64,000 nucleotides of DNA. Source: Desulfovibrionaceae bacterium (lineage in GTDB: Bacteria; Desulfobacterota; Desulfovibrionia; Desulfovibrionales; Desulfovibrionaceae). The position numbers and the translations under genes are program-made. The notes under the pieces were generated by a model, which saw only the letters and a list, made by a program, of their open reading frames with translations, did no database searches and was not told the origin of the DNA. The stretch is taken from contig JAQXLA010000007.1 in the NCBI GenBank assembly GCA_029011315.1, positions 1 to 64,000 of the forward strand, given 5' to 3'. This document shows positions 5,184 through 51,030 of this stretch, piece after piece. Positions within the stretch are counted from its first letter, which is position 1. Each line of letters starts with the position of its first letter.

Positions 5184-6902
5184 TTAGTTGTCGGAAGAAC
5201 CGGCCATCGTCTGCTTCAGGATATCGCCAAGAGTCTGGCTGACATCAGAACCGGAACGGCTGTATTCGCGAGGCTTACGGCGTTCTTCCTCCTCCTTCAG
5301 CTGCTTAATGGAAAGACCAAGGCGGCGTTCTTCAGCACTGACATGAATGATGCGAGCCTGAATTGTATCGCCTTCCTTATACATTTCGTTCGGGCTTTTC
5401 ACTTTCTTATTGCTCAGTTCGGAGACGTGAACCAGGCCTTCGATGCCTTCTTCAACTTCAACGAACAGACCGAAATCCGTGATATTCGTGATCACGCCCT
5501 TCACAATGCCGCCCACGGGATACGCGGTAGGAACATTGGCCCACGGATCTTCAGAAAGCTGCTTAATACCGAGGGTAAATTTCTCATTTTCCTGATCCAC
5601 GGTCAACACTTTCGCCTGAACTGTGTCGCCAACCTTGTACAGTTCATTGGGATGGCGAATTTTCTTCGTCCAGCTGATGTCAGAGACATGAATCAGGCCA
5701 TCGATGCCGTCTTCGATACCGATGAACATCCCGAATTCGGTAATATTCTTAATCGTACCTTCAAGGATCGTACCTTCAGGATATTTTTCACCAACAAGTT
5801 CCCAGGGATTCTGCTTAATCTGCTTCATTCCGAGGGAGATACGCTTCTTTTCAGGATCCACACCGAGGATAACAACCTCAACTTCGTCTCCCTGATGAAC
5901 CATCTGAGAAGGATGACGCAGCTTGCGAGTCCAGGACATTTCAGAAATATGAACCAGACCCTCAACGCCGGGTTCCAGTTCCACAAACGCCCCATAATCG
6001 ACAAGATTCGTTGCCTTGCCCACATGGCGGGATCCAACGGGGAAGCGTTCGGTGATATCCTGCCAGGGATCAGGAATCAGCTGCTTCAGTCCGAGAGAAA
6101 CTTTCTGCGTTTCTTTGTCAAAAGACAGCACTTTCAGTTCAAGTTCCTGTCCAAGCGTCACCATTTCACGGGGATGACGGATACGCTTCCAGGACATATC
6201 CGTGATATGCAGCAAACCGTCAAGGCCACCGAGATCAACGAATACGCCATATTCCGTGATATTCTTTGCCTTGCCTTTGACAATCTGACCTTCAGCCAGA
6301 GTCTGCAGAAGATCCTGACGCTTGCTGTCACGCTCCTCTTCAAGCAGGACGCGACGGGAAACGATCACATTGCTGCGGCGGCGATTGATTTTCAAAACTC
6401 GGAAGCTGTATTCCTGATTGACCAGCGCGTCCATATCAGGCACAGGACGAAGATCGACATGAGAGCCAGGCAGGAAGGCTTCCACTCCGCCGAGATCGAC
6501 AGTGTAGCCGCCCTTAATGCGGCGAATGATGCGACCAGTAATTTCACCGTTCTTTTCCTGGACCTGCTCAAGCTGATCAAACAGCTTATTGCGCTTTGCC
6601 TTTTCAAAGGACAGGGAAATTGTGCCTTCCTGCTCATTCTTATGAGCCACGAAGACATCGATCTTATCGCCTTCGCTGACGGTGATGTTGCCCTGAGAAT
6701 CGCGAAATTCAGCCGTCGGGATCTGACCTTCAGACTTGAAATTCACATCTACCAGGATATTGTCGTCATCAATGCGAACAACAGTTCCCTTTACAATAGT
6801 GCCCTCTTCGAGCTCATTTGTATCGGTAGTCAGATATTCTTCCAGGGCACTGGCAAAATCCATGTTATCAGAGTCCATGCCGTGCTTTTCAATGTTTTCC
6901 AT
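5184..6902 (-). CDS. rpsA: 30S ribosomal protein S1
   Basis: Repeated S1 domains (EYGVFVDLGGLDGLLHITDMSW and similar). Start placed at MENIEKHGM rather than the upstream in-frame ATG of the ORF track. Confidence 0.93.
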   Translation of the reverse strand: MENIEKHGMDSDNMDFASALEEYLTTDTNELEEGTIVKGTVVRIDDDNILVDVNFKSEGQIPTAEFRDSQGNITVSEGDKIDVFVAHKNEQEGTISLSFEKAKRNKLFDQLEQVQEKNGEITGRIIRRIKGGYTVDLGGVEAFLPGSHVDLRPVPDMDALVNQEYSFRVLKINRRRSNVIVSRRVLLEEERDSKRQDLLQTLAEGQIVKGKAKNITEYGVFVDLGGLDGLLHITDMSWKRIRHPREMVTLGQELELKVLSFDKETQKVSLGLKQLIPDPWQDITERFPVGSRHVGKATNLVDYGAFVELEPGVEGLVHISEMSWTRKLRHPSQMVHQGDEVEVVILGVDPEKKRISLGMKQIKQNPWELVGEKYPEGTILEGTIKNITEFGMFIGIEDGIDGLIHVSDISWTKKIRHPNELYKVGDTVQAKVLTVDQENEKFTLGIKQLSEDPWANVPTAYPVGGIVKGVITNITDFGLFVEVEEGIEGLVHVSELSNKKVKSPNEMYKEGDTIQARIIHVSAEERRLGLSIKQLKEEEERRKPREYSRSGSDVSQTLGDILKQTMAGSSDN

Positions 6903-6981
6903 TACAGCCTCCAAAGCCACTTTTTTTGCTCTTTCGAAGCAAGCGCTGTAACCTAGCAAAGTCCATGAAAAAAAGCAAGAA

Positions 6982-7449
6982 CTATTCCCTTGCGTACCCC
7001 GGGTCATTTTGAAGACCCAGGCCGGAGGCTGCGTTTCTGGCTGCTTCATCGCAGCGTTCGTTTTCCGGATGTCCGCTGTGACCCCGAATCCATTGAAAGC
7101 GTACAGTATGCCGCGCGGCAAGCTGATCGAGCAGAAGCCAAAGATCCTGATTTTTCACGGCTTTCCTGCCAGATGTCTTCCATCCGTTTTTCTTCCAGCG
7201 CTGCAGCCATTTTTTTTCTATGGCATCGCGCAGATATCGGGAATCGGTGAAAATTTCCACCTCGCAGGGCTCTTTGAGAGCTTCCAGACCTCTGACAGCG
7301 GCAAGAAGTTCCATTCTGTTGTTCGTTGTCCTCAGAAACCCTCCGCTCAAAAGCTTCTCATGATCACCGCAGCGGAGGATAGCGCACCATCCGCCGTTTC
7401 CCGGATTGCCAAGACAGGATCCATCCGTATACATCCGTACAAATTTCAT
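6982..7449 (-). CDS. rnhA: Ribonuclease HI
   Basis: [25 protein letters not shown] and [25 protein letters not shown] are diagnostic RNase HI motifs. Confidence 0.95.
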
Positions 7450-8006
7450 TGTTCAGCACCGTGTACCGCGTTAGTCCGGGATCGGGCAGTCCGAAAATTT
7501 CTTTTCCCGCGTTTTGAGGCAGACAGAATCTTCACAGCTCCTTCAGAAGAAAGTGCCCGTTCGGTCAGGCCAAAAGGCTCCCAGGTCGAAGGCAGCAGAC
7601 TCATTTCCTCAAAAGCATCTCCAGTAGCGTAAATAACCGGAATATCTCCAGCTTCGGAACCGGCTTTTAAAGAAACGCCTGTCGGCAAAGTTTTCACATC
7701 TGTTTCATACACAGGATTCCTGTCTGGTCTTTGCCTCAATCTATCGTCTGGAAGCGTGATGGTTTCCTGAAGTTCCCCGCGACTGCGCAAATATCGGACG
7801 AAATCATTGCCGGTCAGACCGACCAGCGCGATCATGGGTTCCCCATCTCCAGCAGCCAGCAAACTCACCGGCACCGTTCCTCCGTGAATGCCGATGTAGG
7901 CAATGCGGGCTCCAGCCGGCATATCCCTCCAATCTGAAACAGCTGACGCCGTACAGCAGACTGACAGCAGGATTGCCGTCATCAGGCCTATTGCGCGCTT
8001 CGCCAC
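7446..8006 (-). CDS. Hypothetical secreted protein
   Basis: 186 aa ORF with N-terminal signal peptide ([22 protein letters not shown]); overlaps both neighbours by a few nt, operon-like. Confidence 0.65.
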
Positions 8007-8638
8007 AAAGACCTCACTTCCTCAACGCGCCTTCCGATATCTTCTGCTCCGACGAACTCCGAGACCAGACAGGCGCATTTCGCTCCATGAGCCCGCACTT
8101 CAGCGATATTATGTCGCTTAATGCCTCCGATAGCGACAAAAGGCAGTCTGCTGTGTGCCGCTGCCCAGTCCAGATAGGACAGCGTTACCGGCTGGCAGAC
8201 ATCTTTTTTTGTCTTTGTCGGGAAAAGCGGACCTACACCAATATAATCTGCTCCGGCTTGCAGCGCGGCTTCGGCCTGTTCAGGAGAATGTGTGGACTGG
8301 CCGATAATCATGGAATCGCCCACCAGACGACGAACTTCCTCAACAGGCAGATCCTCCTGCCCCACGTGCACGCCATCAGCCCTGCACAGCATCGCGATAT
8401 CCACATAATCATTGACAATAAAGCATGCGCCATATTCCAGAGTCAGCTTGCGGATTTTCAAACACTCCCGCAGCATCTCTCCGGCTTTTTTTTCCTTTTC
8501 ACGATACTGAATGATGCGGACGCCCGCATTCAGCAAAGCTCTGACAACTTCATCGACAGGACGCCCGAGCGAAAGTCCGGAATCAGTAATTCCGTAAAAC
8601 TCTGTTTCGGGCGAAGTTCCGGGCAAAAGCTTCGGCAT
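7988..8638 (-). CDS. thiE: Thiamine-phosphate synthase
   Basis: RIIQYREK, DGVHVGQEDLPVEEVR, IGQSTHSPEQAEAALQAGADYIGVGPLFPTKTKK motifs. Confidence 0.93.
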   Translation of the reverse strand: MPKLLPGTSPETEFYGITDSGLSLGRPVDEVVRALLNAGVRIIQYREKEKKAGEMLRECLKIRKLTLEYGACFIVNDYVDIAMLCRADGVHVGQEDLPVEEVRRLVGDSMIIGQSTHSPEQAEAALQAGADYIGVGPLFPTKTKKDVCQPVTLSYLDWAAAHSRLPFVAIGGIKRHNIAEVRAHGAKCACLVSEFVGAEDIGRRVEEVRSLWRSAQ

Positions 8639-8642
8639 GCAG

Positions 8643-10367
8643 CTAATCCTCCTTGCCTATGGGCACAAAACGAAATGCTCCAACATCAAAAAGTCCCTGA
8701 TCCGTAAGTTTCAATTCCGGAATAACCGGCAGTGTCAGGAAGCTCAATGTCATAAACGGATGCACATCTTCCGGGATTCTCAAATGATCGTGCGCATACT
8801 GCGTCATTCTGGACAGCGTCGCGCTGATCTCCGTCGGCGTCAAAGAAGACGTCATCAGTCCGCCGACAGGCAACGGCAGCTCTCCAACAGTTTTGCCTCC
8901 TGCCGTTATGACCAGACCTCCCCCAATGTGCTGTATACGCTGAACCGCCAGAAGCATGTCGGCGTCGTTATCTCCTATTACGACAACATTATGCGAATCG
9001 TGCGCGATAGTCGTCGCGACGGCACCGCCGCAGATGCCATATCCGCTGACAATGCCGAGCCCCCTCAAACCTGTCGCCTTATGCCGTTCAAAAACAGCCA
9101 GTTTGGATAGTCCGGGATTATCCTCACAACAAAACAGTCCATTTTCCCGTTTTCTTATGGGCATCTCAAGCGACTTTGTAGTAATACTGTGCCCTTCAAT
9201 ACCGATAACTCTGGCCTTTTCTTCTGCAACGGTGAGAACAAAATCCTGTTCGCTGATCGGTTTCATGAAAACGGAAGCCAAATCAGAAACGTCCTCCGTC
9301 CGATAACAATCCTCCGTTATCCTGCATCCACAGGAATAAACATGAACAGCTCTGAACGATTTGAGATCTTCCATCAAAACGAAATCCGCATCCCACCCCG
9401 GCGCAATAGCGCCTTTACGGGGAATCCGGAAGCATTCCGCTGCATTCAGTGTCGCCATCGTCACAGCGCGAACAGGATCCAGACCAAGCGCAACAGCCTT
9501 GCGCAGAATGGCATCAATATTCCCGTCGCAGAGGAGATCGTACACACTGCGATCGTCACAGCAAAAGGCGCATCGGCGCGCATTGTCTGCAGTCACTTCC
9601 GGAAGAAGCTCACGAAGATTTTTCGCAGCCGTTCCCTCCCGAATCAGAACATACATGCCCCGGGCAATCTTCTCACGCATTTCATCAGGATAACAACATT
9701 CATGATCAGAAATGATGCCGGCAGCGGCATACGCATCCAGACCGTTTCCCCTCAGACCTGGGGCATGTCCATCTGTCAGCTTGCCATATTTCCGTGCCAG
9801 TTCAATTTTCGACAGGACAGCGGGATCTCCGTTGATCACGCCTGGAAAATTCATCATTTCCGCCAGACCAAGCACCGATGGATCCTCGATAAGCGCTTCC
9901 AGATCCCTGCTGTCCAGCACAGCTCCGGCATGTTCGAAGGGAGCAGCCGGCACACAAGAAGGAAGCATGAAAAACGTATGCAGGGGCAGATCCCGGCAGG
10001 CATTTATCATGTAGCGAATGCCGTCCAGACCGCATACGTTGGCGATTTCATGCGGATCCGCGATGACCGATGTCGTGCCTCGCGGCAAAACCAGCGACGC
10101 AAACCGTACGGGATCCAGCAAAGTTGATTCGATATGAATATGCGCGTCAATCAGACCAGGCGTCATGTACAGCCCTTCCGCATCGAAAACGGCTTCGCTT
10201 TCTCCTTCTCCGAATCCCAGAAAAATCCCGCATCCGATGCGTACGCTTTCTCTGCGAATCGTCCCGCTGAACACATCGACGAGCCGTACATTTCGAATCA
10301 GCAAATCGGCAGGAAGACGTCCCGAAGCCCTCTCTATCACATCTGACAAGCGCATTGTTCCCTCCAT
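8643..10367 (-). CDS. ade: Adenine deaminase
   Basis: TPGLIDAHIHIESTLL, DGHAPGLRGNGLDAY and the C-terminal GGLMTS region typical of Ade. Confidence 0.92.
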   Translation of the reverse strand: MEGTMRLSDVIERASGRLPADLLIRNVRLVDVFSGTIRRESVRIGCGIFLGFGEGESEAVFDAEGLYMTPGLIDAHIHIESTLLDPVRFASLVLPRGTTSVIADPHEIANVCGLDGIRYMINACRDLPLHTFFMLPSCVPAAPFEHAGAVLDSRDLEALIEDPSVLGLAEMMNFPGVINGDPAVLSKIELARKYGKLTDGHAPGLRGNGLDAYAAAGIISDHECCYPDEMREKIARGMYVLIREGTAAKNLRELLPEVTADNARRCAFCCDDRSVYDLLCDGNIDAILRKAVALGLDPVRAVTMATLNAAECFRIPRKGAIAPGWDADFVLMEDLKSFRAVHVYSCGCRITEDCYRTEDVSDLASVFMKPISEQDFVLTVAEEKARVIGIEGHSITTKSLEMPIRKRENGLFCCEDNPGLSKLAVFERHKATGLRGLGIVSGYGICGGAVATTIAHDSHNVVVIGDNDADMLLAVQRIQHIGGGLVITAGGKTVGELPLPVGGLMTSSLTPTEISATLSRMTQYAHDHLRIPEDVHPFMTLSFLTLPVIPELKLTDQGLFDVGAFRFVPIGKED

Positions 10368-45487: not shown

Positions 45488-46169
45488 TCATGCCACCTTC
45501 CTCTTTCCTGTCACGACCTCGTAGATGAGCGACTTCTTGTAGCTTTCAAGGTCGGAGATGAGGGCTTCTTTCTCGCGGATGAGCTGGTCGATTTCACTGC
45601 ACTGCAAGTTAAGATAAGTAACAATTCTCTGCTGTTCTTCCGCTGAAGGCCACGGAATTTTTACACTGCCAATCTGCTCGAAGTTTAGACCTGCACGATT
45701 GCCACCAGTTTGGAATTTTTCAACGACAACAGGCCCACACGCAGAATTCCAAAAATATCGCAAATACACAGGAAGAATTTTTTCTTTTATCGTGCGAATA
45801 ATACAAACATGCTGATTCACATTAGCTCGTTCCCTTTTATCAAAAAGACAACATCTACCAATAGAACCACCACCTGTTATATTTAGCAATACATCCTTAT
45901 ACTGCACCCTTGTTTTTCATGTCTTCATCAATTTCTTCCGAAATAAATGAAACGTCATCAAGAACAAGGCCAGTGTTATACACGTTCTGACTGCGAAGAA
46001 ACATAATACCTTCGCTTGAATACACTTCAGCCCCGCCTGAAGGAGTTTTCCCACTTCCTATTTTAGAAGTAGCGTGCTTCAGGGCTATAGTATTCCAATG
46101 TCTCGGCATCATCCCAATCCACTCCACGCCGCTGTCCTTCATCTCGGCATAGCGCATCACTTCAGCCAT
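45488..46169 (-). pseudogene. Type I restriction-modification specificity subunit HsdS (half-size, frameshifted)
   Basis: Two overlapping frames (MAEVMRYAEMKDSGVEWIG...SEEIDEDMKNKG / VQYKDVLLNITGGGSIGRC...YKKSLIYEVVTGKRKVA) join by a one-base shift at about 45900. Confidence 0.8.
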
Positions 46170-46170
46170 G

Positions 46171-47954
46171 TCAGTCCTCCGCCTTGCCGAACAGCTTATG
46201 CAGTTTTTCCATGAAAACGCGTTCATGATCTTCGATACGCCGGGCAATGTCTGCCGCAGGTTCTATGGCCTTGTATTCATAAAAGGTACGGGTAAAGGGG
46301 ATTTCATAGCCCACTTTTGTTTTGCTGCGGTCTATCCATGCTTCGGGGTTATAAGGCAGAACTTCGCGGGCAAAATAGGCATCGATCTCTTCTGCAAGCG
46401 GCACATTCTCCGTGTCGCGCCTTGATGTGTCGGCCACCGGTTTCCCACGCTTGAGAACTTTGCTGCCGTCTTCATTGAGCAGGGGACTTTCCACCACGAT
46501 CTTGCGGTAGCCGAAGGAATCGCCTTCCAGCACCTTGCTTTTGCACACAATGCTTCTGCCGCTCTCGGTCACAGCCTCATAATCCTTGTCCACAAACTCG
46601 CCGCAGGCCTTCACGATGAGGTCGCGGCAGGCTTCGGAAATGTCCACGCGCTTGTTGCCAATAGCCTTGCGGCGCGGCTCGAAGCACTTGCTAGCATCTA
46701 CCAGCTGAACTTTGCCGGTACGCTGGCTGTCTTTATTCTTGGTAATGATCCAGACGTAGGTGGCGATGCCCGTGTTGTAAAAGCTGTCATTAGGGAGCTG
46801 AACAATACTTTCAAGCCAGTCGTTCTCAATAAGATAGCGGCGTATTTCAGACTGGCCGGATGCGGCATCTCCCGTAAACAGAGACGATCCGTTCTGAATG
46901 ATGGCCATGCGGCCTTCCGGGCGAAGCTTGGCAAGACCGTTGGGCAGGAAGAGCATCTGGCCATCTCTTTTGCTGGGCAGTCCGGGGCCGAAATGCCCGG
47001 ATTCGCCACGGCGATGTTCAGCCTCCACCATGGGGGACTCACGCTTCCAGTCAATGCCGAACGGCGGGTTGGAAATGCAGTAGTCGAACTGGTATCCCTC
47101 AAACTTGTCGTCGTCGAGAGTGTTGCCGAACTGCATGTTGTCGGGGTCTCCGCCACGGATGAGCATATCCGCCTTGGCAATGCCGAAGGTGAAGGGGTTG
47201 ATCTCCTGGCCGAAACAGGTCACGTCGGCATGAGCATCAAGCTGGGTGAGGCGTTCCTCCATGCAGGTGAGCATCTGGCTTGTACCCATGGCCATATCGT
47301 ATACGGTTTTTGTGATGCCTTCGGAACCAAAGGCGTTTTTGTCGCCTGATACCAGCAGGTCGCACATCAGGTAGATGATGTCGCGGCTGGTGAAGTGTGC
47401 CCCGGCTTCCTCGTTGTAGCTTTCAGAAAAACGTTGGACGAGGTTTTCAAAGATATAGCCCATATCTACGGCGCTGATTTTCTCCACGCTCATGTCGGCC
47501 TTTTCAGAGCAGAAATCCACGATAACCTGATACAGGCAGCCCGCTTCAACCATGCGATCGACCTGCGAGGAGAACTGCATACGGGTAAGGATGTCCTGAA
47601 CGTTGTCGGAAAAGCCGCTGAGATAGGCTCGGAAGTTGTCTGCGATATTCTGAGAGTCTGCCTTCAGCGTTTCAAAGGTAAAAGGACTGGTGTTGTAGAA
47701 CTGTAGCCGGACGCCTTGCGAAGAAAGGCATCCTTCACGGCAAGATGCCTGATGCTTTCCAGCTTTTCCAGCACTGCGGAATGCGTGGGAAGAAGGCAGT
47801 CATGGAAACGCTTGATGACGACCATCGGCAGGATGACCAGCCCGTATTCGTGCGGCTTGAACGCGCCAAAGAGCGAGTTGGCTACGTTCCAGATAAGGGC
47901 TGCCTTATCCTGAATATTTTTGCTGACAGACGAAATCCTTTCACTGCTGGTCAT
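46171..47954 (-). pseudogene. Type I restriction-modification methyltransferase HsdM (frameshifted)
   Basis: Frame 1: MTSSERISSVSKNIQDKAALIWNVANSLFGAFKPHEYG...FLRKASGY; shift near 47700; frame 2: FYNTSPFTFETLKADSQNIADNFRAYLSGF...NPPFGIDWK. Confidence 0.85.
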
Positions 47955-48068: not shown

Positions 48069-48086
48069 TGGCGGAGAGGGAGAGAT
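48069..48086. repeat. Displaced tRNA-Ser 3'-end copy (att-like direct repeat)
   Basis: TGGCGGAGAGGGAGAGAT matches 50941-50958 TGGCGGAGAGGGGGAGAT with one mismatch. Confidence 0.7.
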
Positions 48087-48195
48087 AATCCCCCAATCGT
48101 CAATATCCTATCAAGCCATTGGGTTATGGCAATGTGGAATCCTATTGTCTCGGACAAATGTAACAGACAAAGGGTAGCATCGGTTTGATTGGATA

Positions 48196-48762
48196 TCAAT
48201 CCTTTTTACAGTGAACATAGATGGTCTGACGCGAGACGTCATACTCTTTAGCAAGGGCGGAAACGGTTTCATTGTTAGTGAGACGGTTGTTGATTTCGTC
48301 TATCTGTTTTTCTGTCAGAGATGGCTTTCTACCGCACTTGTCGTAGGCGTTACGCTGTCTGGCTAGGGCTATTCCCTCTCGCTGTCTTTCTCGTATCATT
48401 TGGCGTTCAAATTCAGCCACCGCGCCAAGAATATTGAGATATAGAGTTTGGTTAGGGTTGGGCTTATCGCCGTTAAATTCCATATTCTCTTTTACAAAGT
48501 GGATACTGACTTTTTTAGAGAGTAGTTCTTGGACGATATTGAGTAGGTCACGCAAAGAGCGAGCCAATCTATCAATGCTGTGTATGTACAGGGTGTCACC
48601 GTCACGGAGATAGTCTAGGCACAGTTTGAGTTGAGGACGATTAGTGTCTTTGCCAGAACACTTATCCTCAAAGACCTTATCCAAATTGATACCGTTGAGT
48701 TGTCTTTCTGTATTTTGTTCGAGGGTGGATACACGGACATAACCAATTTTCTTACCGTTCAT
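48196..48762 (-). CDS. Serine recombinase (resolvase/invertase family)
   Basis: GYVRVSTLEQNTERQL (catalytic Ser), IHSIDRLARSLRDL, AEFERQMIRERQREGIALA, C-terminal HTH. Confidence 0.93.
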   Translation of the reverse strand: MNGKKIGYVRVSTLEQNTERQLNGINLDKVFEDKCSGKDTNRPQLKLCLDYLRDGDTLYIHSIDRLARSLRDLLNIVQELLSKKVSIHFVKENMEFNGDKPNPNQTLYLNILGAVAEFERQMIRERQREGIALARQRNAYDKCGRKPSLTEKQIDEINNRLTNNETVSALAKEYDVSRQTIYVHCKKD

Positions 48763-48790
48763 ATTTCATACTCACTTGTGTAAATTCATA

Positions 48791-48858
48791 TGTCAAAAAA
48801 TAGTTTTGACCTTTTTTATAATGTGTCAAGTAACCGGAATATCAGTAATTGTTTGACA
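48791..48858. promoter_or_regulatory. Candidate res/recombination sites upstream of the serine recombinase
   Basis: TGTCAAAAAATAGTTTTGAC (48791-48810) and TGTCAA-N23-TTGACA (48824-48858). Confidence 0.5.
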
Positions 48859-49075
48859 TACGACCAAGGTGAGATAGTCAAATAGAGGTGTACTTTTGAA
48901 TGGCACCTTGTAGGAAAGAATGAATGAAACCACCTAGGAATAGTCTTTGGTGGTCTATCTTATATGCTCTCATCAGCCAGACACTTTTCACTCGGATGCA
49001 ATGTCTGTAAAATGGCTAATACCAACGGGTTTCAGACATTAAGTCGCCCTAATAGACTATATAATAGACTAAAAA

Positions 49076-49117
49076 AGTAGCATAGGGGACTACGCTATGC
49101 TTTGCCCCTATGCTACT
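49076..49117. repeat. 13-bp stem hairpin within left inverted-repeat arm
   Basis: agtagcatagggg / cccctatgctact. Confidence 0.65.
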
Positions 49118-49310
49118 TGAAAGATGAATTGGTAGGTCGTTGAGAGGTGACTTGGAGATGATGTGTCTTCTCTACTGGGTAATGATGCTCTGTGCCGAGG
49201 AGTTCTTGATGAACAGAAATGTAAGAACGAGTAGTGGAGTTTTATCAAGACAAACAAAGAGAATTCTCTATTATGTACAGAAAGAAATATAGAGACTTCT
49301 CTATTAATTT

Positions 49311-49904
49311 TTAAAATCGTGAGGCGTCGCTTTTGAGTGAGGAGTTTTCTTCGTTTTGGCGAATATTAAAATTTTTATCTGTATACAATACACAAACACC
49401 TCCTCCATCTAAAAAACAGAATATACGTGAATTTTTACTTTCATACATACTTCCAAAGAGGCAATCAATTTTAGGCAAGGCTTCTTGCTCCCAAGAAGTT
49501 AGCGCATTAGGATTTAATTTATCAATGTATTCTTTATTAACTTGTTTATATTTTTTGTTAAGAAAATCTGCCATTTTGAGATAAAAATCCATAGAGTCAA
49601 GGTTTAATTGTACATTACTCTGTTTTGAATTTTCCGCTTTGGGAAATCCTACCATTACTTGATACAACTTATTTTTGGGAGAAAAAATATAAATAAAAAA
49701 TCCTGATTTTCCGAACAAATTACAACCATAACCCAAAGCATTTTCATCTTCTCTGATTAATGTTTTTTTTTCTATTGACTTTACTTCACTCGGTGACATT
49801 CCCCATTTGGAGTCGCCAAAATTACCTTCATTCGCAAAACCAGAAGATACAAAGGATTCTAGAAAGATAATACAACATAGGAATAAAGAAATAACCTTTC
49901 GCAT
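49311..49904 (-). CDS. Hypothetical secreted protein, cargo between inverted repeats
   Basis: Signal peptide MRKVISLFLCCIIFLESFVSSGFA; mature FGDSKWGMSPSEVKSIE...; AT-rich. Start placed at MRKVISL. Confidence 0.7.
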   Translation of the reverse strand: MRKVISLFLCCIIFLESFVSSGFANEGNFGDSKWGMSPSEVKSIEKKTLIREDENALGYGCNLFGKSGFFIYIFSPKNKLYQVMVGFPKAENSKQSNVQLNLDSMDFYLKMADFLNKKYKQVNKEYIDKLNPNALTSWEQEALPKIDCLFGSMYESKNSRIFCFLDGGGVCVLYTDKNFNIRQNEENSSLKSDASRF

Positions 49905-50252
49905 AGCATACTCCTTCTTGGCAGAGTTGAGAATTTTTTCATTTGATGTCAGAGTAGTCTGACTTGCTAACACAAAGAAGAGAATAGTTTACCTTAATCA
50001 TAGCAAATATTCCTATCTATTTATAGCAAAAATGAATAATTTGTAGGATATTGTTCACCCATTCAATTTATGCATATATTATATAATAAATAAAATATTT
50101 GTCAAGTATTAAAATTTATTAACATTAATATTCTTTTATTATAAAGAAGAATGACTCATATTATAGATATAAGTTGCTTTATTATTATCGTGAATATATT
50201 CAGTCTTTTTTCATCTACCGTTTTCATCCTTTCCCATCGTCGGGGCACACTT

Positions 50253-50738
50253 TCGGCACAGAGTATCTCTGATTACCTGATAGAAAGAATACAATTCTCA
50301 ATCCACCTTTCAACGACCTACCAATTCATTTTTCAAGTAGCATAGGGGCAAAGCATGGCGTAGTCCCCTATGCTCTTTTTTAGTCTATTATATAGTCTAT
50401 TAGGGCGACTCAATGCCTGAAAACCGTTGGTATTAGCCATTTTACAGACACACCATCCGAGTGAAAAGTGTCTGGCTGATGAGAGCATACAAAATAGACC
50501 ACCAAGGACTATCCACACGAGTGTGGTTTCATTCATTCTTTCCTACAAGGTGCCATTCAATCTCTCACCTTGGTCGTATGTCAAATAATTACTGATATTC
50601 CGGTTACTTGACACATTATAAAAAAGGTCTAAACTATTTTTTGACATATGAACTTACACAAGTGAGTATGAAATATAAACGGTAAGAAAATTGGTTATGT
50701 CCGTGTATCCATCCTCGAACAAAATACAGAAAGACAAC
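50253..50738 (-). repeat. Right arm of imperfect long inverted repeat
   Basis: Inverted counterpart of 48699-49199. Confidence 0.8.
50675..50738 (+). pseudogene. Truncated 5' fragment of serine recombinase
   Basis: ataaacggtaagaaaattggttatgtccgtgtatccatcctcgaacaaaatacagaaagacaac matches the start of the 48762 gene, with ATG changed to ATA, then diverges. Confidence 0.8.
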
Positions 50739-50821
50739 CTTTCCATACACAGATTTGAGTTTATTCGGAATGGGTAGTCTGAAATACCAAGAGTAGTCTC
50801 TTTTTTGGAGATAAATACGGA

Positions 50822-50858
50822 AAAAGCCCTATCAAGTTTTTGGCTTGATAGGGCTTTT
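50822..50858. terminator. Strong bidirectional terminator hairpin
   Basis: aaaagccctatcaag-tttttgg-cttgatagggctttt. Confidence 0.8.
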
Positions 50859-50940
50859 TTATATGACATTTTGACTTACAATTGTAACTTACAGAGGTAA
50901 TACCCCTGTTTTGGGCAATAAAGTCAATGATTTCAATGTC

Positions 50941-51030
50941 TGGCGGAGAGGGGGAGATTCGAACTCCCGATACCTTTCGGGTATACACGATTTCCAATCG
51001 TGCTCCTTCGGCCATCTCGGACACCTCTCC
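50941..51030 (-). tRNA. tRNA-Ser(GGA)
   Basis: Reverse strand GGAGAGGTGTCCGAGTGGCCGAAGGAGCACGATTGGAAATCGTGTATACCCGAAAGGGTATCGGGAGTTCGAATCTCCCCCTCTCCGCCA; acceptor GGAGAGG/CCTCTCC, long variable arm, anticodon GGA, encoded CCA. Confidence 0.96.

What the first reader, a model, noticed from the sequence alone, without database searches (positions are those of the whole stretch)
48699..50738. ~490-500-bp imperfect inverted repeat flanking a ~1-kb segment, with a serine recombinase reading out of one arm
Seen directly: the reverse complement of 48699-49199 aligns to 50253-50738 along most of its length. Examples are the cataggggcaaagcat(a/g)gcgtagtcccctatgct block, the ccaattcat(c/t)tttcaagtagcat block and the recombinase start gtaagaaaattggttatgtccgtgtatcca(c/t)cctcgaacaaaatacagaaagacaac. 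The left arm continues into an intact serine recombinase. The right arm stops within its first ~20 codons and has lost the ATG (ATA). The segment between the arms (49200-50252) holds one secreted-protein gene. This is the geometry of an invertible cassette or a decayed composite element. Inference: either the central segment can be flipped, or this is a fossil of inverted duplication of a resolvase module.
Basis: partly seen in the sequence, partly recalled or inferred. Interest (0 to 1): 0.66.

Follow-up and report, generated by a model that had tools for sequence, protein, structure and literature searches.

The report
Decayed resolvase duplication in tRNA island
The inverted repeat is real, but it is best read as an old, half-dead inverted duplicate of a resolvase gene and its DNA site inside the remnant of a mobile island inserted at a serine-tRNA gene; it does not look like a working genetic switch.

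Summary
Observation confirmed. Arms 48699-49199 and 50253-50738 are inverted copies (94.5% identical without gaps, 88% with gaps). The right arm does not truly stop at codon ~20. A ~107-nt frameshifting deletion removes resolvase codons ~20-55, after which 26 nt of the gene are still recognisable (21/26). The right arm is therefore a dead second resolvase copy: ATG->ATA, T13I, deletion.

What it is: homologous resolvases elsewhere in this Desulfovibrionaceae family sit in tyrosine-integrase islands at tRNA/tmRNA genes, often tRNA-Ser(GGA), sometimes next to a type I R-M operon. The window keeps this order: tRNA-Ser(GGA), then resolvase, then (broken) hsdM-hsdS, with an 18-nt copy of the tRNA 3' end at 48069. 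The integrase is gone.

Mechanism: a Tn3/SGI1-like res site (site I 48877-48904, II 48825-48857, III 48792-48810) lies upstream of the intact resolvase. A related 28-bp site I lies upstream of many relatives, as a rule once per locus, which fits resolving island multimers. The right arm has lost the site I core, and the cargo gene has its own promoter inside the segment. A resolvase-driven or promoter-type switch is therefore unlikely. Rare RecA-mediated inversion is not excluded.

Ordinary, but well explained.

The parts
48196..48762 (-). Intact serine recombinase (resolvase), 188 aa, only one in the genome
   Evidence: PF00239 E 7e-38 + HTH_7; only PF00239 hit in the genome; NG86 dN 0.17 / dS 2.4 (saturated) against the Mailhella orthologue L003
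48699..49199 (-). Left arm of the inverted repeat: 5' end of the resolvase, res region, terminator hairpin
50253..50738 (+). Right arm: decayed copy of the same module (ATA in place of ATG at 50675-50677, T13I)
50733..50758 (+). Remnant of resolvase codons ~56-64 beyond a ~107-nt frameshifting deletion in the right copy
   Evidence: 21/26 identity anchored at the break, 0 of 2000 shuffles
48877..48904 (-). Predicted res site I (crossover site), core AAAAGTACACCTCT, centre 128.5 bp upstream of the start codon
   Evidence: position and 12/14 core match to the site found upstream of related resolvases; conserved block in Mailhella L003/L052. The full 28-bp matrix score is low
48825..48857 (-). 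Predicted res site II, 33-nt dyad GTC...GAC
   Evidence: same spacing in L003 and L051
48792..48810 (-). Predicted res site III, GTC...GAC dyad
50560..50561 (+). Junction in the right arm where ~19-22 nt including the site I core are missing
   Evidence: alignments; no site above background in the right arm (best 2.5)
50579..50645 (+). Surviving site II (50579-50611) and site III (50627-50645) of the right copy, one mismatch each
   Evidence: alignment, sequence
49311..49904 (-). Cargo gene: 197-aa secreted protein of unknown family
   Evidence: no Pfam, PHROGs or NCBIfam match; 26-29% relatives in two other genomes of the family
50078..50105 (-). Consensus sigma-70 promoter of the cargo gene (TTGACA-16-TATAAT, 12/12), inside the segment
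49075..49118 (-). Terminator-like hairpin in the left arm, between the cargo gene and the resolvase
   Evidence: -25.2 kcal/mol, z -6.5, T-run
50335..50374 (+). The same hairpin in the right arm
   Evidence: -20.3 kcal/mol, z -4.6
50941..51030 (-). tRNA-Ser(GGA), insertion site of the island
48069..48086 (+). att-like copy of the tRNA-Ser 3' end (17/18)
   Evidence: two matches in the window, 0.01 expected by chance
46171..47954 (-). hsdM remnant of a type I R-M operon, frameshifted between 47580 and 47664
   Evidence: 39% identical to hsdM of tRNA-Ser islands L103 and L130
45488..46247 (-). hsdS remnant, split and shortened (116 + 139 aa; 423-448 aa in the islands)
   Evidence: no HSDR_N match anywhere in the genome

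Best explanation
The inverted repeat is an inverted duplication of a res-resolvase module inside the remnant of an integrative genomic island at tRNA-Ser(GGA). Intact islands of this kind consist of tRNA or tmRNA, a ~570-620-aa tyrosine integrase, cargo, a res-resolvase module and sometimes type I R-M, closed by a copy of the tRNA 3' end. In this reduced genome the integrase and hsdR are gone, hsdM and hsdS are broken, one resolvase copy (left) is intact and the other (right) is dead. Shown: the duplication, the decay of the right copy, the tRNA repeat, the shared gene order. Inferred: the intact resolvase acts, or acted, like the Tn3/SGI1 resolution system, recombining directly repeated res sites so that tandem or circular multimers of the island become monomers. 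With one apparently complete res site in the genome it now has no second substrate and should not be able to use the two arms to invert the segment. How the duplication arose is open: two related islands with opposite resolvase orientation that became neighbours, or duplication within one island.
For: Right arm is a resolvase pseudogene: ATA start, T13I at the conserved RVST motif, ~107-nt deletion with the gene resuming at 21/26 identity. tRNA-Ser(GGA) at 50941 plus an 18-nt copy at 48069. AT-rich block, 31-43% GC against ~50% outside. 71 of 288 genomes of the family carry this resolvase at E <= 1e-40. Of 82 resolvase loci read, 29 also hold the integrase and 33 a tRNA/tmRNA, and more than a dozen have a tRNA or tmRNA 3'-end copy on the far side of the resolvase. 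tRNA-Ser islands L104 and L130 have resolvase then hsdM ~220 bp on; the window has 242 bp. A 28-bp site I consensus lies upstream of 23 relatives, as a rule once per locus; the left arm has a 12/14 core at the expected position and sites II/III at Tn3-like spacing. The right arm lost the site I core. Own promoter inside the segment. Island G029 (L088) has two intact same-family resolvases head to head, in the same orientation relative to integrase and tRNA-like gene as here. SGI1 precedent: res boxI 28 bp with AC centre, multimers eliminated (PMC12217951).
Against: No integrase remains, so island membership rests on the tRNA repeat and shared gene order. The att copy at 48069 lies between resolvase and hsdM, not beyond the R-M genes; either there were two neighbouring islands or the R-M genes lie outside this one. 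The left site I scores low with the full 28-bp matrix. Site I was found in only about a quarter to a third of the relatives. Multimer resolution was not tested. No empty site or sister strain was available: in the Lawsonia-sized relative G006 the tRNA-Ser has other neighbours.
Confidence: 0.76

Rival explanations
1. Invertible cassette: the serine recombinase flips 49200-50252 between the two arms and so switches the secreted-protein gene on and off or reorients it (phase variation).
For: Inverted arms around one surface/secreted gene, a recombinase next to them, and the best solved relative is the Gin invertase; PHROG name is DNA invertase.
Against: The right arm lost the core of the predicted crossover site; relatives carry as a rule one site per locus; the cargo promoter lies inside the segment, so flipping changes nothing at the promoter; no second orientation seen.
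Confidence: 0.06
2. Slow inversion by host homologous recombination between the arms, without any role of the resolvase.
For: Arms 94.5% identical without gaps, longest exact run 43 nt.
Against: Short, interrupted identity; arms have diverged with many indels and show no sign of recent conversion; no population data.
Confidence: 0.12
3. Composite mobile element: the two modules are the ends of a transposon-like unit that carried the cargo gene as one piece.
For: Two inverted end modules around one AT-rich foreign gene.
Against: No transposase ORF in 48069-50941; no other copy of the arms in the genome or the family; no terminal repeats or target duplication found beyond the tRNA att repeat.
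Confidence: 0.05
4. Assembly artefact at a repeat.
For: 26-contig draft genome.
Against: The arms differ at 26 positions plus indels and the locus is internal to a 66-kb contig; one copy shows ordinary pseudogene decay.
Confidence: 0.02

Closest known systems
tRNA/tmRNA-integrated genomic islands with tyrosine integrase (Islander class, PMC4383910)
   Same: Intact tRNA gene at one end, displaced 3' fragment as direct repeat, foreign composition, R-M cargo as in family islands L103, L104, L130
   Different: Integrase lost, R-M genes broken, fragment lies before the R-M genes; a remnant
SGI1 resolution system (S027 resolvase + res; PMC12217951)
   Same: Integrative island with a ~180-210-aa resolvase, res upstream with a 28-bp site I and AC centre, then sites II and III; multimer resolution is the shown role in SGI1
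   Different: Not homologous as an island; resolvases were not compared directly here; here a second, dead copy lies in inverted orientation; activity not tested
Island at tmRNA in family genome G029 (locus L088)
   Same: Two resolvases of the same family, head to head, between integrase and AAA gene, same orientation relative to integrase and tRNA-like gene
   Different: Both genes intact, 280 bp apart, sharing one site I between them; no cargo between
Gin/Hin/Mpi DNA invertases
   Same: Small serine recombinase; Gin is the best solved relative
   Different: No pair of inverted crossover sites and no promoter or gene fusion to switch

Membership tests
tRNA-integrated genomic island | Restored tRNA gene plus displaced 3' fragment as direct repeat | tested here: met
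   tRNA-Ser 50941-51030 and 17/18 copy at 48069-48086, 0.01 expected
tRNA-integrated genomic island | Tyrosine integrase gene in the element | tested here: not met
   Only two phage-integrase-family genes in the genome, 335-339 aa, on other contigs, XerC/D-like in size. Filed as a remnant, not as a functional island
tRNA-integrated genomic island | Gene order shared with intact islands | tested here: met
   tRNA-Ser, resolvase, hsdM, hsdS on one strand as in L103, L104, L130
tRNA-integrated genomic island | Atypical composition | tested here: met
   31-43% GC against ~50%
Tn3/SGI1-like resolution system | Resolvase of ~180-210 aa with catalytic domain and C-terminal HTH | tested here: met
   188 aa, PF00239 + PF02796, aligned to Gin over residues 6-183
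Tn3/SGI1-like resolution system | res upstream with 28-bp site I plus accessory sites II and III | tested here: inconclusive
   Sites at -142..-115, -95..-63, -48..-30; core 12/14, full matrix score low; binding not testable
Tn3/SGI1-like resolution system | Recombination of two directly repeated res sites | not testable with these tools
   needs an assay
Invertible DNA cassette (Hin/Gin/Mpi type) | Two intact crossover sites in inverted orientation | tested here: not met
   Right arm lacks the predicted site I core
Invertible DNA cassette (Hin/Gin/Mpi type) | Inversion changes expression (promoter or gene end crosses the boundary) | tested here: not met
   Cargo promoter 50105-50078 and whole gene lie inside the segment
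Invertible DNA cassette (Hin/Gin/Mpi type) | Both orientations found in reads or relatives | not testable with these tools
   One genome only; no reads
Composite transposon | Transposase and terminal repeats with target duplication | tested here: not met
   No transposase ORF between 48069 and 50941; no further copies

The most novel reading that the evidence does not exclude
The right arm, which keeps sites II and III but not the crossover core, works as an accessory or decoy res element in inverted orientation that restrains the resolvase or gives it a new topology. The inverted resolvase pairs (here and G029) would then be a selected feature of these islands.
Probability: 0.05. Interest if true: 0.5.

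Novelty: new member of a known kind. Interest (0 to 1): 0.27.

Why it matters
It shows how an apparent invertible cassette can be the scar of an island's own multimer-resolution module, in a host with a reduced genome that is otherwise nearly free of recombinases. The comparison also yields a testable 28-bp res site I consensus (TGTCnCAAAAGGTATACCTTTTGnGACA) for a resolvase found in 71 of 288 genomes of the family, repeatedly inside tRNA/tmRNA islands.

Tried and rejected
Phage and plasmid collections: only the tRNA matched. Rfam: nothing. Arm DNA in 199 family genomes: only three genomes of one other genus, with resolvase and res parts only. Inverted repeats in the other fetched resolvase loci: apart from L087, whose two resolvases belong to two neighbouring islands, only short unrelated ones. 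L124 at first looked like a second inverted pair, but its second stretch is only 30% identical, so it is not a same-family pair. L120 looked like a minimal twin (tRNA-Ser, resolvase, 37-nt repeat), but the repeat is a ~200-bp direct duplication. Polarising the arm differences with Mailhella gave 5 right-derived, 4 left-derived, 2 unclear, several at the deletion junction, so the count decides nothing; the coding changes do. An exact pattern for the crossover block in viral contigs: none. The cargo protein has no named family and no viral relative. First estimate of a 102-nt in-frame deletion was wrong; it is ~107 nt and out of frame.

Full report
OBSERVATION. The reverse complement of 48699-49199 aligns to 50253-50738 over its whole length. 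There are 450 identities, 26 mismatches and 35 gap positions; identity is 97% in the resolvase-proximal quarter and 91% at the distal end. The genome holds just these two copies. The left arm runs into an intact 188-aa serine recombinase, 48196-48762 (-), with the resolvase catalytic domain and its helix-turn-helix domain. It is the only such gene in the 1.49-Mb genome.

THE RIGHT ARM IS A DEAD RESOLVASE COPY. The apparent end at 50738 is a deletion, not the end of homology: 50733-50758 matches codons ~56-64 of the resolvase at 21 of 26 positions, anchored at the break, and none of 2000 shuffles did as well. The two GACA words at the break lie 107 nt apart in the intact gene, so the deletion shifts the frame and runs into a stop. 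The start codon is ATA, and the only other substitution in the remaining 5' coding part turns T13 of the conserved RVST motif into I. The left copy is under purifying selection relative to its Mailhella orthologue (76% identical; dN 0.17, dS saturated).

SETTING. The whole structure lies in an AT-rich block (31-43% GC against ~50%) between tRNA-Ser(GGA) at 50941-51030 (-) and an 18-nt copy of that tRNA's 3' end at 48069-48086 (0.01 expected). Beyond the copy lie hsdM, frameshifted, and hsdS, split and shortened. The genome has no HSDR_N match and no integrase other than two XerC/D-sized genes elsewhere.

RELATIVES. The resolvase occurs at E <= 1e-40 in 71 of 288 genomes of the family. I read 82 loci with it: 29 also carry a ~570-620-aa tyrosine integrase and 33 a tRNA or tmRNA (many loci are cut by contig ends). 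More than a dozen show a copy of the tRNA or tmRNA 3' end on the far side of the resolvase. Nine have the integrase and tRNA-Ser, among them L103, L104 and L130, where the order is tRNA-Ser, integrase, resolvase, hsdM on one strand, with hsdS following in L103 and L130. In L104 and L130 hsdM follows the resolvase by ~220 bp; here the distance is 242 bp. The window is thus what is left of such an island, or of two neighbours, since the tRNA copy lies before hsdM.

RES SITE. The ~160 bp upstream of the resolvase are conserved with Mailhella L003 and L052. A core close to AAAGGTACACCTTT recurs upstream of the family's resolvases, mostly 120-180 bp before the start: 30 of 84 upstream regions have it with at most 3 mismatches, against 4 in shuffled sequence. 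Extended to 28 bp, 23 sites give TGTCnCAAAAGGTATACCTTTTGnGACA, as a rule with one site per locus. The left arm has AAAAGTACACCTCT at -135 to -122, although its full 28-bp score is low, then two GTC...GAC dyads centred 49.5 and 89.5 bp further on. This is the layout of Tn3-type res. In SGI1, an island with such a system, boxI is also 28 bp with an AC centre, and restoring the system speeds the loss of SGI1 multimers (PMC12217951). The right arm keeps sites II and III but a 19-22-nt deletion removed the site I core (best score there 2.5).

WHY NOT A SWITCH. Besides the missing crossover core, the cargo gene 49311-49904 has its own perfect consensus promoter inside the segment at 50105-50078 and a terminator-like hairpin downstream in the left arm (-25.2 kcal/mol, z -6.5), so inversion would not alter its transcription unit. 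Inversion by homologous recombination remains possible in principle (longest exact run 43 nt).

ORIGIN OF THE DUPLICATION. Not resolved. Resolvase orientation relative to the integrase is 17 same to 15 opposite among 32 cases, so two related islands of opposite type becoming neighbours is plausible. Neighbouring islands are seen in L087. An intact head-to-head pair of the same family exists in G029 (L088), with one site I shared between the two genes.

VERDICT. Real and explained: a decayed inverted duplication of a res-resolvase module in a remnant tRNA-Ser island.

Noticed in passing
L088 (G029 C12) 5489-6893: Two intact resolvases head to head, 280 bp apart, share one crossover site I in a palindromic intergenic region, as if joined by site I recombination in inverted orientation.
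   Followed up: partly
G047 contig C22 (L048, L049): A 60-kb contig in a genome of the same genus is bounded on both sides by ~62-nt copies of the tRNA-Ser(GGA) 3' end, suggesting a large island or its circular form at the same tRNA.
   Followed up: no
window 45488-47954: Broken type I R-M operon (hsdM frameshifted, hsdS shortened), with no HSDR_N gene in the genome.
   Followed up: yes
L087 (G155 C1): Two neighbouring islands, at tmRNA and at tRNA-Met, each with integrase, resolvase and a copy of the RNA gene's 3' end.
   Followed up: partly
L120 (G249 C23) 5354-8842: tRNA-Ser and resolvase segment bounded by a ~200-bp direct repeat that includes the tRNA 3' end, with ankyrin-repeat-like cargo and no integrase match.
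   Followed up: partly
L051 (G190 C11) 7773-9973: A close relative of the resolvase (69%) sits beside an AT-rich lipoprotein gene and tRNA-Leu, but no attachment repeat was found.
   Followed up: partly
G006: Same-genus genome with a 1,457,619-bp chromosome in 4 contigs (size of Lawsonia intracellularis, from memory): no island genes were seen beside tRNA-Ser(GGA) and this resolvase is absent.
   Followed up: partly
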